This document shows positions 30,379 through 37,547 of a DNA stretch of 64,000 nucleotides, one piece after another (position 1 is the first letter of the stretch; each line of letters opens with the position of its first letter). Below the pieces are notes generated by a model. That model was given only the letters and a program-made list of their open reading frames with translations. It did not search any database and was not told the origin of the DNA. The DNA is from Rosistilla carotiformis. GTDB taxonomy: Bacteria > Planctomycetota > Planctomycetia > Pirellulales > Pirellulaceae. A program made the translations under genes and the position numbers. The DNA is taken from the NCBI RefSeq assembly GCF_007753095.1, contig NZ_CP036348.1, positions 6,611,411 through 6,675,410 on the forward strand, written 5' to 3'.

Positions 30379-31671
30379 TTAGGCGGATTCGAGTTCGGGC
30401 TGAGTTAGCGACGGGATGTACGCGACGCAGCGGGCGACTTCATTCTGCAGGTCGTCGATCAGGTCGACGATCTCGTCCAGATGCTCATCGCGCCCCGCCT
30501 GTTCGATCTCTGCGGCGATCGACTGTAACGGGTGCGCTGCAAGGATTCCGGCCATCCCTTTTAATGTATGGGCGGCCTGCCCCGCAGCCACCGCGTTGCG
30601 TTGACGGGCGTGCATGACGATCTCTTCGACACGGGCGAGACTGTCGGCCTGAAACGATTCCAACAGCGACTCGGCGAAACTCAAGTCTCCCATGCAACGC
30701 TCTAAAAATTCTTTGCGAACAAAGGGCGTCGCTTCGTCACCAATCGGCCTGTCGTCGCCCGAGTCGTCGCCCGAGTCGGCGGACTTGGTCGGCGGTTCGG
30801 CCGGCAGCCACTGTTCAATGATCTCCGTCAATTGATTCGGGTTAAAAGGCTTGGCAAGGTAATCGTCCATGCCCGCCTCGAGACACTTCTGGCGATCCCC
30901 TTTCAGCGCGTTTGCCGTAACCGCGATGATCGGACATCGGTGGGTAACGCGGCCATCCAGCTGTCGTTTCCGAATTTCACGCGTCGCCGAAAAGCCATCC
31001 ATGATCGGCATTTGGCAGTCCATCAGAATCAGGTCGAATGCCTTGGTTCCGATAGCATCCAACGCTTCGATTCCATTGGTCGCAATCTCGCATTTCCAAG
31101 CCTTCCCCACCAACACTTCTTGGGCCAGCATTTGATTGATTTGATTGTCTTCGACAAGCAGAATCTTGGGGGCCGTGGCATCATCGATCCGTTGCATCGC
31201 AGTCGACGACAGGGCGGTCGATGGAGCGCCATCGAGATCGCGGGATGACAATGCGACGCAAGCGGTGGGCTCGGCCAGTGATTGTGCGGATTCGGTTGCA
31301 TCGCAGTACACAGCGATCACCTCTTGCGGTTGGCTTGAATGGACAGAGGGAAAATTTGAGTTCTCTTGAACGACGGCTAACATCTTCTGCAGGTCCAGAA
31401 ACTGGGTTTGAACGGTACGCACCGCGGGTTCGAAAACAAACACCACCTCGATGACCATCGCTAAAATCGTCAGGGCAAGAACGAGCCGTGAGGTCGTGTG
31501 TGGTTCTTGGATTCCAACGGGAAGAACAAGCTGTACGACGACCGAAAACGCAACGATCCCGCCCAAGGCCAGCAGGTACCTGCGTCGAAGATCCCTGCTA
31601 GGATCATGCGTCGGGCGCGCTGGCCGTCGAGTATCGGCGGTCAGGTCTAAACTATCGATATTGGTTTTCAT
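30379..31671 (-). CDS. Membrane-anchored receiver-Hpt phosphorelay protein
   Basis: 430 residues. Two membrane segments at about 33-50 and 62-80 are followed by VFEPAVRTVQTQFLDLQKML, which resembles the end of PilJ-type sensor domains. Residues about 168-290 are a receiver (KILLVEDNQINQML; acceptor Asp218 in LILMDCQMP; Lys274 in YLAKPFNP). Residues about 322-420 are an Hpt domain with the phospho-histidine in AAHTLKGMAG (His368). It has no kinase or DNA-binding domain. It is the last gene of the cluster, 69 bases after the 6-TM kinase, and can supply the Hpt step missing from the hybrid kinase upstream. Confidence 0.9.
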   Translation of the reverse strand: MKTNIDSLDLTADTRRPARPTHDPSRDLRRRYLLALGGIVAFSVVVQLVLPVGIQEPHTTSRLVLALTILAMVIEVVFVFEPAVRTVQTQFLDLQKMLAVVQENSNFPSVHSSQPQEVIAVYCDATESAQSLAEPTACVALSSRDLDGAPSTALSSTAMQRIDDATAPKILLVEDNQINQMLAQEVLVGKAWKCEIATNGIEALDAIGTKAFDLILMDCQMPIMDGFSATREIRKRQLDGRVTHRCPIIAVTANALKGDRQKCLEAGMDDYLAKPFNPNQLTEIIEQWLPAEPPTKSADSGDDSGDDRPIGDEATPFVRKEFLERCMGDLSFAESLLESFQADSLARVEEIVMHARQRNAVAAGQAAHTLKGMAGILAAHPLQSIAAEIEQAGRDEHLDEIVDLIDDLQNEVARCVAYIPSLTQPELESA

Positions 31672-31740
31672 ATCGCATCGGTCAATTCGTGTAAGTTGCG
31701 TTTGCAGGCGTTTGGCAGCAGAGCAGGTTGGGGCGGAGGG

Positions 31741-37100: not shown

Positions 37101-37547
37101 TCGCTCGACCGACCAAGGCAATGCGTCCCCGACGATCAGATGGTTCAAACCGCTGCAGAACATCCAACAGGACAACAGTCCTAGCGCAGCAGAAATCGGC
37201 CCGCCGAATCGCCCACCCCCACAGATCAACAGAATCCCGGGGATCGCCAGACAGGCGAGGAAAATTGCGATGTTTGAGATGTTGGAAATATTGGAGACCG
37301 AAGCGTCCGGCATTGTCCCCAACGCGTGGCTCCAACGCGCTGCGACGTCTCGCAGGTGCGCCGCAACCGACGAACTGGAGCTTAGCCCAGCAATGCGCAC
37401 GCCCTCCGCGATGGGAATCCATGCTTCCGAGTTTTCAAGATGGGCGTGCCGTGCGTTTGCAGTCGCGCTGCTTGACGCAACTACCGGCGCAGCGTTCCCA
37501 AAGGCCGCCGCAACGAGGCAAAAGATACCCATGATTGGTTTGTTCAT
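34119..37547 (-). CDS. Hybrid sensor histidine kinase, three PAS domains and two receivers
   Basis: 1,142 residues. Signal peptide at about 1-27, three membrane helices at about 92-110, 117-139 and 151-174. PAS-like domains at about 195-310, 320-440 and 448-550 (each ending in PAC-like ITVVEDIQRRKDA or SVRDITERKQTEQ). HisKA with SMSHELRTPLNGVIG (His578). HATPase about 680-795 (NLLGNALKF, DTGIGIP, GGSGLGLSI). The first receiver-like unit, about 815-930, has lost the acidic pair and has Arg instead of the conserved Lys (Asp870 retained), so it is probably inactive. The second, about 963-1085, is complete (AEDNATNQLF, Asp1013, Lys1069). There is no Hpt. It is the first gene of the RedB-kinase cluster and ends 114 bases before the RedB-like gene. 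Confidence 0.93.
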   Translation of the reverse strand: MNKPIMGIFCLVAAAFGNAAPVVASSSATANARHAHLENSEAWIPIAEGVRIAGLSSSSSVAAHLRDVAARWSHALGTMPDASVSNISNISNIAIFLACLAIPGILLICGGGRFGGPISAALGLLSCWMFCSGLNHLIVGDALPWSVERLAMPLSVLTAIVSWILVLVLVRLLPTLRRLPRKTSAAKSLKRRITQLEFAIEAGSLGVWEWNITEDTLAWDARTRELFDADPDADGLCYQTFLDCLHVSEREQVAVRVAECITTGSHYDTMHTVVHRDGSIHYVQVLGKYVADSGEPEKFTGICIDCTETQRQRDTLQASESNFRSTFEQIALGIAHVALDGRWLRVNQGMCEILGYSSEEMLRGYFQDQTHPDDLSSCLNLVGQTIAGQRDSFSVEKRYVRKDGTPIWVNATVSVVRDPSGTPSHLITVVEDIQRRKDAEKALSESSERTRAILNSAFDGILTIDQCGTIGMVNSAVERIFGFHERELVGTNVSKLMSWPLQSGHNCEQEIVGTRRDGSRFPLEFNTTEVAAAGSRLLTVSVRDITERKQTEQALKAAKKAAEDASVAKSEFLASMSHELRTPLNGVIGMTELLAESPLDVRQRRFVNACQSSGNALLTLISDILDLSKIEAGCLELDEHPFDLLQLMDEVMSCLPVKSQESDVQLLYILDSPTTLQLNGDSHRLRQVLLNLLGNALKFTEQGQVTLRAEPQQLTDDRATIRFSIQDTGIGIPQDRLDRLFKSFSQVDSSISRKYGGSGLGLSISKAIVDALGGQIGVESTEGVGSRFWFTVSFKVAEADADSTHDWSLGRLSNLRVLLLEQQSATQEMLVQFLRNWEIQVDAVETADLAIPRLERALGIGRPYDLVIADEAACVDGDSGWMRHVESHRSDQDKPVPLFVIGAADRGAAIHADGYRQYLPRPVGQSHLFDALNDQFCRGANKREVAVAVDDVQQQSGDDGMTTRILLAEDNATNQLFAREILSRNGWKCDIVENGEDVLAALEKKPYSVILMDCQMPIMDGFTATQEIRKREIDGRLSHSPLIVALTANAIQGDRERCLHAGMDDYVSKPFNPAHLASVTQSMLDLADKRAKRKSTDCQTDVSPFRETSPRECFSNERGDGLPAGIDFAPPADYVGPQGSLR

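What the first reader, a model, noticed from the sequence alone, without database searches (positions are those of the whole stretch)
30379..37547. RedB-linked phosphorelay cluster
Four same-strand genes: hybrid kinase (His-Asp, no Hpt), RedB-like membrane thioredoxin-fold protein, 6-TM kinase without receiver (4-base overlap with RedB), and a membrane-bound receiver-Hpt protein with no output domain. Together they hold every step of a His-Asp-His relay, but no DNA-binding output. The coupling of the Cys-x-Cys extracytoplasmic protein with a His-rich 6-TM kinase suggests redox or metal sensing.
Basis: partly seen in the sequence, partly recalled or inferred. Interest (0 to 1): 0.7.

Follow-up and report, generated by a model that had tools for sequence, protein, structure and literature searches.

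The report
Thioredoxin-like protein paired with membrane receptor
Two neighbouring genes make a small cysteine-bearing protein on the outside of the cell membrane and the six-helix membrane receptor it travels with in many bacterial groups, a paired sensing device that plugs into many different signalling outputs and may read redox state or a metal.

Summary
The four minus-strand genes are real and as described. The robust finding is inside the cluster: the RedB-like protein (membrane-anchored thioredoxin fold) and the 6-TM half of the downstream kinase form one conserved input module. In a 392-genome phylum draw, 53 of 55 strong RedB matches lie directly upstream of a 6TM gene; the other two run off contig ends. 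Among the 80 best named loci (a biased set), 75 6TM genes have it. The module sits on kinases, hybrid kinases, chemoreceptors and GGDEF-EAL proteins. RedB distances follow the 6TM domain (r 0.71), not the attached kinase (r 0.12). RedB's Cys-x-Cys and a third cysteine are invariant (101 of 101). The 6TM domain has a conserved His and acidic signature, mostly at helix ends on the predicted periplasmic side; its model resembles 6TM domains of adenylyl cyclases and ImcA. The four-gene order is kept in the genus (3 of 3 genomes) and was seen nowhere else; elsewhere the kinase often carries its own receiver, or regulators are separate. Of the adjacent regulators examined, most are c-di-GMP or HDOD types and none binds DNA. 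Redox or metal sensing and the phosphorelay remain inferred. No description was found in the papers searched. New variant of a known kind.

The parts
33249..34004 (-). RedB-like protein: one N-terminal TM helix (model helix 20-49), then a thioredoxin-fold domain
   Evidence: no family above cut-off in Pfam or NCBIfam
33738..33746 (-). Cys-x-Cys of RedB (C87, C89; here CFC)
   Evidence: invariant in 20 of 20 rows of A2 and 101 of 101 pairs
33321..33323 (-). Third invariant Cys of RedB (C228, in FGC near the C-terminus)
   Evidence: 20 of 20, 101 of 101
31741..33252 (-). 6-TM histidine kinase without receiver; start at the ATG that overlaps the RedB stop by 4 bases
32611..33252 (-). 6TM receptor domain (aa 1-214): helices 15-54, 68-90, 95-115, 122-136, 139-159, 174-214
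   Evidence: AF2 model, mean pLDDT 88.4; resembles adenylyl cyclase 9 and ImcA 6TM domains
32872..32889 (-). THFHIF motif (aa 122-127), part of the conserved His and acidic signature
32389..32583 (-). HisKA of the 6-TM kinase
31912..32250 (-). HATPase_c of the 6-TM kinase
30379..31671 (-). Receiver-Hpt protein behind two hydrophobic stretches, no output domain
30817..31164 (-). Receiver domain of the receiver-Hpt protein
   Evidence: E=4.5e-27
30436..30666 (-). Hpt domain of the receiver-Hpt protein
   Evidence: E=5e-11
34119..37547 (-). Hybrid kinase: ETR1_N-like 3-TM domain, PAS repeats, HisKA, HATPase_c, receiver; no Hpt. Beside the module in this genus only, as far as mapped
37014..37289 (-). 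ETR1_N-like (ethylene-receptor-like) domain of the hybrid kinase; Ser in place of the copper-ligand Cys
   Evidence: alignment with two congeners (ligand residues recalled)
34314..34655 (-). Receiver of the hybrid kinase

Best explanation
RedB and the 6TM domain are two halves of one sensory input device. RedB is held in the membrane by one N-terminal helix and presents a thioredoxin-fold domain with three invariant cysteines on the periplasmic side. It works on the periplasmic rim of the 6TM domain, where most of the conserved His and acidic residues lie at helix ends. A change in RedB's thiols, or a metal it gives to or takes from those residues, shifts the long sixth helix that runs into the signalling part. 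Here the signalling part is a histidine kinase. It would phosphorylate the separate receiver-Hpt protein encoded next door (in many relatives a receiver is fused to the kinase); the Hpt would hand the phosphoryl group to a regulator encoded elsewhere, most likely of the c-di-GMP or HDOD sort. The ETR1_N hybrid kinase, with a 70% identical kinase core, probably adds a second input to the same receiver-Hpt in this genus. Shown here: pairing, co-evolution, portability over outputs, invariant residues, predicted folds, domains. Inferred: direct contact, redox or metal signal, direction of control, relay order, final output.
For: Pairing: 53 of 55 RedB matches of 100 bits or more in 392 genomes have the 6TM just downstream; the other two end at contig edges. 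75 of the 80 best named loci. Acidobacterial draw of 199: 8 RedB matches in 6 genomes, 8 6TM matches in 7; six of the 6TM lie just behind a RedB. Portability: MCP (L093, L098, L133, L173), GGDEF-EAL (L069, L161), kinases and hybrids. Co-evolution: RedB-6TM r=0.714, RedB-kinase 0.123, 6TM-kinase 0.036, 86 distinct loci; bootstrap interval of the first difference 0.44 to 0.74. Residues: three Cys 101 of 101; the 11-residue 6TM signature intact in 97 of 107 6TM with RedB next to them, and in 1 of 7 from genomes where no RedB was found (P=2e-5). Precedents: senC invariably cotranscribed with regA and/or regB in group 1 systems (PMC9147068, passages); IsmP, an iron-binding membrane partner, inhibits the 6TM diguanylate cyclase ImcA (PMC10904736, abstract, passages and section 10).
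Against: No contact between RedB and 6TM was shown. No metal or redox gene was seen to recur next to the pair, so the signal is a guess from residues. RedB has Cys-x-Cys, not the Cys-x3-Cys of Sco. Adjacency is not universal: in three genomes (G474, G656, G658) one strong RedB and one 6TM are present but apart. Some 6TM proteins do without RedB: 6 of the 11 genomes searched have no RedB match, and L119 keeps the full signature without one (a draft MAG). In genomes with another, complete pair, extra RedB-less 6TM keep the signature in 3 of 6 (L117, L167, L079 yes; L086, L089, L092 no). The phosphorelay and its target were not tested.
Confidence: 0.58

Rival explanations
1. RedB is a dedicated maturation or assembly factor for the 6TM protein (inserts a metal or heme once, or handles a disulfide) and plays no part in sensing; the 6TM alone senses, for example a quinone, a gas or a lipid as CqsS-type domains do.
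For: The link is to the 6TM and not to the kinase, as a chaperone would give. Sco-like and CcmG-like folds are near in structure and are assembly proteins (recalled). The 6TM domain of CqsS responds to a lipophilic ligand (PMC12414865, passages).
Against: Some 6TM proteins of the family occur without RedB. The 6TM half has no invariant or nearly invariant Cys in A1, so disulfide handling has no obvious target.
Confidence: 0.3
2. The four genes are a self-contained phosphorelay (hybrid kinase to receiver-Hpt) in which RedB is only a neighbour, as the first title suggests.
For: All domains of a relay are present; the four-gene order is kept in 3 of 3 genomes of the genus; the kinase cores form one clade and so do the receivers.
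Against: Outside the genus RedB-6TM stays together while the ETR1_N hybrid and the separate membrane receiver-Hpt are not beside it.
Confidence: 0.07
3. The pairing is a hitch-hiking operon that moved between phyla as a unit by horizontal transfer, without physical interplay of the two proteins.
For: Patchy distribution within phyla (6TM in 7 of 199 acidobacterial genomes at E 1e-15 and in 53 of 392 of the window's phylum at E 0.001).
Against: The outputs fused to the 6TM change freely while RedB stays; three genomes keep one strong RedB and one 6TM although the genes are apart; the 6TM signature is mostly lost where no RedB was found.
Confidence: 0.05

Closest known systems
SenC (PrrC) with the RegB/RegA redox two-component system
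   Same: A membrane-anchored thioredoxin-fold protein encoded with a 6-TM sensor kinase system; PMC9147068 (passages) says senC is invariably cotranscribed with regA and/or regB in group 1 systems and that RegB has six membrane helices.
   Different: SenC is a Sco protein (Cys-x3-Cys, recalled); RedB has Cys-x-Cys plus a C-terminal Cys. RegB's partner RegA is a DNA-binding regulator; here no adjacent regulator examined binds DNA. The RedB-6TM module also drives chemoreceptors and GGDEF-EAL proteins.
IsmP-ImcA iron module of Pseudomonas aeruginosa
   Same: A membrane protein with a metal-binding sensor domain controls a 6TM signalling protein (PMC10904736); the 6TM folds resemble each other (8wcn Z 12.1, 194 residues, 3.7 A).
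   Different: IsmP senses through a CHASE4 domain and also has a PAS domain; RedB is a thioredoxin fold with only a short cytoplasmic tail. No sequence match of the 6TM profile to any solved chain.
6TM receptor domains of membrane adenylyl cyclases and of the quorum-sensing kinase CqsS
   Same: Six-helix domain whose last helix runs into the signalling part; AC9 7pd4 Z 13.2, 170 residues, 3.2 A. The Cya structure paper proposes an extracellular cation site and a possible unknown protein partner there (PMC9433096, passages).
   Different: No detectable sequence relation to solved chains or Pfam families. CqsS binds a lipophilic autoinducer; I know of no RedB with it (recalled, not searched). 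Whether the His and acidic signature occurs in those proteins was not tested.
Thioredoxin-like proteins of the 2cvb/2ywi/3u5r type
   Same: Nearest fold (Z 14.0-14.8) and the best, weak, sequence matches among solved chains (2ywi E=0.003, 3u5r E=0.018).
   Different: Their active-site motif, anchoring and gene neighbours were not compared here.

Membership tests
Thioredoxin superfamily (RedB) | Thioredoxin fold with active-site Cys at the first helix of the domain | tested here: met
   AF2 model pLDDT 82.6; 2cvb Z 14.8 and many thioredoxin-like chains; C87, C89 at the start of helix 88-106.
Sco/SenC (RedB) | Cys-x3-Cys copper site | tested here: not met
   Cys-x-Cys in 101 of 101. Sco fold is only one of many near folds (yeast Sco1 Z 10.7). 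Sco motif recalled.
RegB/RegA group 1 | 6-TM kinase encoded with a thioredoxin-fold membrane protein | tested here: met
RegB/RegA group 1 | Cognate DNA-binding response regulator in the cluster | tested here: not met
   None in the window cluster; none among the adjacent regulators examined in relatives.
RegB/RegA group 1 | Quinone-binding site and redox-active cytosolic Cys | not tested
   No RegB sequence was aligned.
Adenylyl-cyclase/CqsS-type 6TM receptor domain | Six-helix domain, last helix continuing into the signalling part | tested here: met
   Helices and continuous helix 174-214 in the model.
Adenylyl-cyclase/CqsS-type 6TM receptor domain | Common descent by fold or sequence | tested here: inconclusive
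   AC9 Z 13.2, ImcA 12.1, AC8 10.0, AC9 (9u3v) 9.7, next unrelated 8.4 (the tool warns that under about 13 may be chance for helical bundles). No Foldseek match at E 0.001, no sequence match.
His-Asp-His phosphorelay | HisKA, receiver and Hpt domains present | tested here: met
His-Asp-His phosphorelay | Phosphotransfer between these proteins | not testable with these tools
   needs biochemistry
Ethylene receptor (hybrid kinase N-terminus) | ETR1_N profile match above cut-off | tested here: met
   43 bits against 27; 69.5 bits in a congener
Ethylene receptor (hybrid kinase N-terminus) | Cys and His copper ligands | tested here: not met
   His kept, Cys is Ser in 3 of 3 genomes by my reading of the alignment; which residues are ligands is recalled.

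The most novel reading that the evidence does not exclude
RedB-6TM is a widespread, undescribed two-protein receptor in which a periplasmic thioredoxin-like protein is the natural regulating partner of an adenylyl-cyclase-type 6TM domain. RedB switches it by thiol state or by handing a metal to a histidine and acid site, and the same receptor is mounted on kinases, chemoreceptors and c-di-GMP enzymes in about ten bacterial phyla (by record names).
Probability: 0.4. Interest if true: 0.78.

Novelty: new variant of a known kind. Interest (0 to 1): 0.62.

Why it matters
What ligands or partners act on 6TM domains of the adenylyl-cyclase type is an open question (PMC12414865 calls their function a blind spot; seen as start of abstract and two passages). 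A bacterial 6TM family with a dedicated, co-evolving partner predicted to sit on the periplasmic side would give a genetic handle on it. It would also give a role to RedB, for which neither Pfam nor NCBIfam has a matching model, and an input to many hybrid kinases of planctomycetes, Verrucomicrobia and Acidobacteria.

Tried and rejected
Conserved metal, heme or respiratory neighbour as a clue to the signal: clustering of 965 context proteins from 107 RedB-6TM loci gave only signalling proteins and RedB as recurrent; the next clusters occur in 6 loci or fewer (those small clusters were not named).

NCBIfam has no match. Papers with 'RedB' and 'histidine kinase' (3 papers, listing): two concern a CRP/FNR regulator of Rhodobacter, the third is the RegA paper, which holds the word once. 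'RedB' and 'thioredoxin' gives none. No paper describing the pair was seen in the listings; the library holds open-licence papers only.

A RedB on plasmids: none with the acidobacterial query. Foldseek alone did not find the 6TM fold (best E 0.13; ImcA at rank 33 with E 1.9); the match came from the second look.

Weak RedB matches (below 100 bits): left out of the main count, because they look like ordinary thioredoxin-fold proteins; 55 rows of 100 bits or more were counted. The 20-bit count that one search also prints used only five of the weak rows and is not used here.

A first tally put five RedB-less loci in the class 'RedB elsewhere' (Fisher). Searches showed that in G654 and G657 that RedB stands beside another 6TM, so only three genomes (G474, G656, G658) have both genes apart; the 6TM there keep the signature in 2 of 3. 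The test was redone without them (97 of 107 against 1 of 7, P=2e-5). Two of the 16 RedB-less loci (L087, L091) lie at contig edges and are not counted.

The idea that 6TM without RedB is just more divergent: among RedB-bearing 6TM with weak profile scores, 6 of 8 keep the signature, against 1 of 7 in RedB-less genomes. Numbers are small, one of those genomes is 72% complete (G035), several are draft, one 6TM is a contig-edge fragment (L080, whose genome was searched with a single sequence only).

The correlations do not correct for shared ancestry; the kinase domains are of several families, so their distances are noisy, which lowers the kinase correlations. Two of 123 6TM sequences were duplicates between collections.
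Full report
What is there. The window is a stretch of a 7.44 Mb single-contig genome. The best named match to its 6TM domain is Rhodopirellula maiorica (70% identity), so it is most likely a planctomycete of that neighbourhood. Four minus-strand genes follow each other, in order of transcription: hybrid kinase 34119-37547, RedB-like 33249-34004, 6-TM kinase 31741-33252, receiver-Hpt 30379-31671. Pfam gives PAS, HisKA, HATPase_c and receiver in the first, nothing above cut-off in RedB, HisKA and HATPase_c in the third, receiver and Hpt in the fourth. The start of the 6-TM kinase that fits best is the ATG at 33252, overlapping the RedB stop by four bases and preceded by an AAGGAGAG run. 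The genome gave one RedB match and one 6TM match.

RedB and 6TM go together. In 60 genomes (the window's own and its relatives), RedB is found in 21 and 6TM in 24. In an even draw of 392 genomes of the phylum, 53 have a 6TM match and 92 some RedB match at E 0.001. Of the RedB matches, 55 reach 100 bits; 53 of these lie directly upstream of a 6TM match on the same strand. The remaining two lie at contig ends where the downstream gene cannot be seen. Seen from the other side, 61 6TM matches reach 100 bits and 53 have RedB; of the eight without, two (G401, G236) lie at contig edges.

In 75 of those 80, RedB lies just upstream. The record names, as deposited, include Planctomycetes, Verrucomicrobia, Acidobacteria, Deltaproteobacteria, Omnitrophota, Hydrogenedentota, Elusimicrobia, Melainabacteria, Armatimonadetes types (Fimbriimonas, Abditibacteriaceae) and a Chloroflexi bin. 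These 80 are the closest to a profile built mostly from RedB-linked sequences, so 75 of 80 is a biased figure; the 392-genome draw, and an acidobacterial draw with the same profiles, are less so. In the acidobacterial draw of 199, 8 RedB matches fall in 6 genomes and 8 6TM matches in 7 (E 1e-15). Six of the 6TM have RedB directly in front, one of them with a second RedB before it (G526). G464 has 6TM alone, and G474 has both genes apart.

Exceptions followed up. Eleven genomes holding a 6TM without RedB beside it were searched for RedB; five have a strong one. In two of these (G654, G657) it stands beside another 6TM; in three (G474, G656, G658) there is one 6TM match and one strong RedB, apart. 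Six have none (G035, G049, G140, G418, G464, G655). So adjacency is the rule, not a law.

The partner is the 6TM, not the kinase. The 6TM domain carries plain kinases, hybrid kinases with one or two receivers and Hpt, MCP signalling domains (L093, L098, L133, L173 with RedB; L077, L079 without) and PAS-GGDEF-EAL or GGDEF-EAL (L069, L161 with RedB). Tree distances of RedB follow those of the 6TM (r 0.714) but not those of the kinase fused to the same 6TM (0.123), and 6TM and kinase do not follow each other (0.036), over 86 distinct loci. With 101 pairs the RedB-6TM correlation is 0.75; the best of 2000 permutations reached 0.32. So kinases are swapped while RedB and 6TM stay together.

Residues. 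Across 101 pairs, the two Cys of Cys-x-Cys and the Cys of the C-terminal (F)GC are invariant; the His of HPxCxC is kept in 100 of 101, and the His of RGH in 90; in the window genus the latter is Gln. In the 6TM domain, seven His, three acidic residues and one Arg at positions 67, 69, 114, 119, 121, 123, 125, 152, 153, 177 and 178 of the window protein form a signature that I chose from the conserved columns; it is intact in 97 of 107 RedB-adjacent proteins. By the helix limits of the model, and with the kinase inside, most of these lie at or near the periplasmic ends of helices 2 to 6. Where no RedB was found in the genome the signature is intact in 1 of 7 (L119 yes; L077, L080, L081, L088, L090, L194 no), Fisher P=2e-5, without correction for relatedness and with the signature chosen on mostly RedB-linked rows. 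Where RedB is present but apart it is intact in 2 of 3 (L145, L171 yes, L193 no). In genomes that also hold a complete pair, extra RedB-less 6TM keep it in 3 of 6.

Folds. The RedB model (pLDDT 82.6) is one membrane helix and a thioredoxin fold, nearest to 2cvb, 2ywo, 3u5r and 2ywi (Z 14.0-14.8), with CcmG, ResA and Sco chains further down. The 6TM model (pLDDT 88.4) is nearest to adenylyl cyclase 9 (Z 13.2, 170 residues, 3.2 A) and the diguanylate cyclase ImcA (Z 12.1, 194 residues, 3.7 A), then AC8 (10.0), another AC9 entry (9.7), and unrelated helical proteins from 8.4. That the top four are all 6TM signalling enzymes is telling, but the tool warns about helical bundles, and no sequence relation was seen.

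The local arrangement. In G001 and G002, of the same genus, the four genes are in the same order. In G014 and R. maiorica, close relatives outside the genus, 6TM, kinase and receiver are one protein behind RedB, with a REC-HDOD gene on one side and another hybrid kinase on the other. The receivers of the window's receiver-Hpt, of its hybrid, and of those fused relatives form one clade (support 0.93), and so do the kinase cores (0.998). The separate kinase and receiver-Hpt are thus best read as a split or reshuffled version of a fused hybrid; the tree does not resolve which receiver gave rise to which.

Outputs. Same-strand genes within 400 bases of the pair in 107 loci include 15 REC-HD-GYP and 7 REC-GGDEF by profiles built here; four of the former (HD_5) and two of the latter were confirmed with Pfam. 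Of 22 receiver-only ORFs, 12 were examined with Pfam (ten, two): five HDOD, one SpoIIE, one HATPase, five receiver alone; none has a DNA-binding domain. The other ten, not examined, are at most 190 aa; neighbours with kinase domains (but for L112) and one REC-REC gene (L158) were not examined either. One RedB-less hybrid kinase lies behind a T2SSE pilus-type ATPase with receiver.

How it most likely works is given under Best explanation. It resembles SenC with RegB, and IsmP with ImcA, in layout. It fails the defining motif of Sco and the DNA-binding partner of RegB/RegA, so it is not filed as a member of either.

Verdict. The four-gene relay is local; the RedB-6TM pair inside it is a widespread, co-evolving input module for which I found no Pfam or NCBIfam model and no description in the papers searched. 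What it senses is open.

Noticed in passing
37014-37289: ETR1_N-like domain in the hybrid kinase: His kept, copper-ligand Cys replaced by Ser in all three genomes of the genus; Asp of the first helix kept in two of three (ligand residues recalled).
   Followed up: partly
39865-41500: A cysteine-rich UvrB/UvrC-motif-like protein followed by an ATP:guanido phosphotransferase-like gene, looking like McsA-McsB (recalled, not searched), next to an ECF-type sigma factor-like gene at 41550.
   Followed up: no
24883-28626: Large repeat protein (1247 aa) with many similar repeats and an N-terminal ALEARLPL motif; looks like a planctomycete surface protein (recalled, not searched).
   Followed up: no
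L083:3069-11332: Elsewhere in the same genome, a PAS-rich kinase with a core 70% identical to the 6-TM kinase lies near a hybrid kinase with two receivers: the same kinase core with another sensor.
   Followed up: partly
L072:7164-8141: A RedB-6TM pair whose 6TM protein (325 aa) has no recognisable output domain; L181:267-1211 is similar.
   Followed up: no
L195:2854-4668: Two RedB genes in tandem before one 6TM kinase (acidobacterial draw, G526).
   Followed up: no
L193:3878-9309: A pilus-type ATPase (MshEN-T2SSE) carrying a receiver directly before a 6TM hybrid kinase; the RedB of that genome lies elsewhere, behind a topoisomerase gene (L192).
   Followed up: partly
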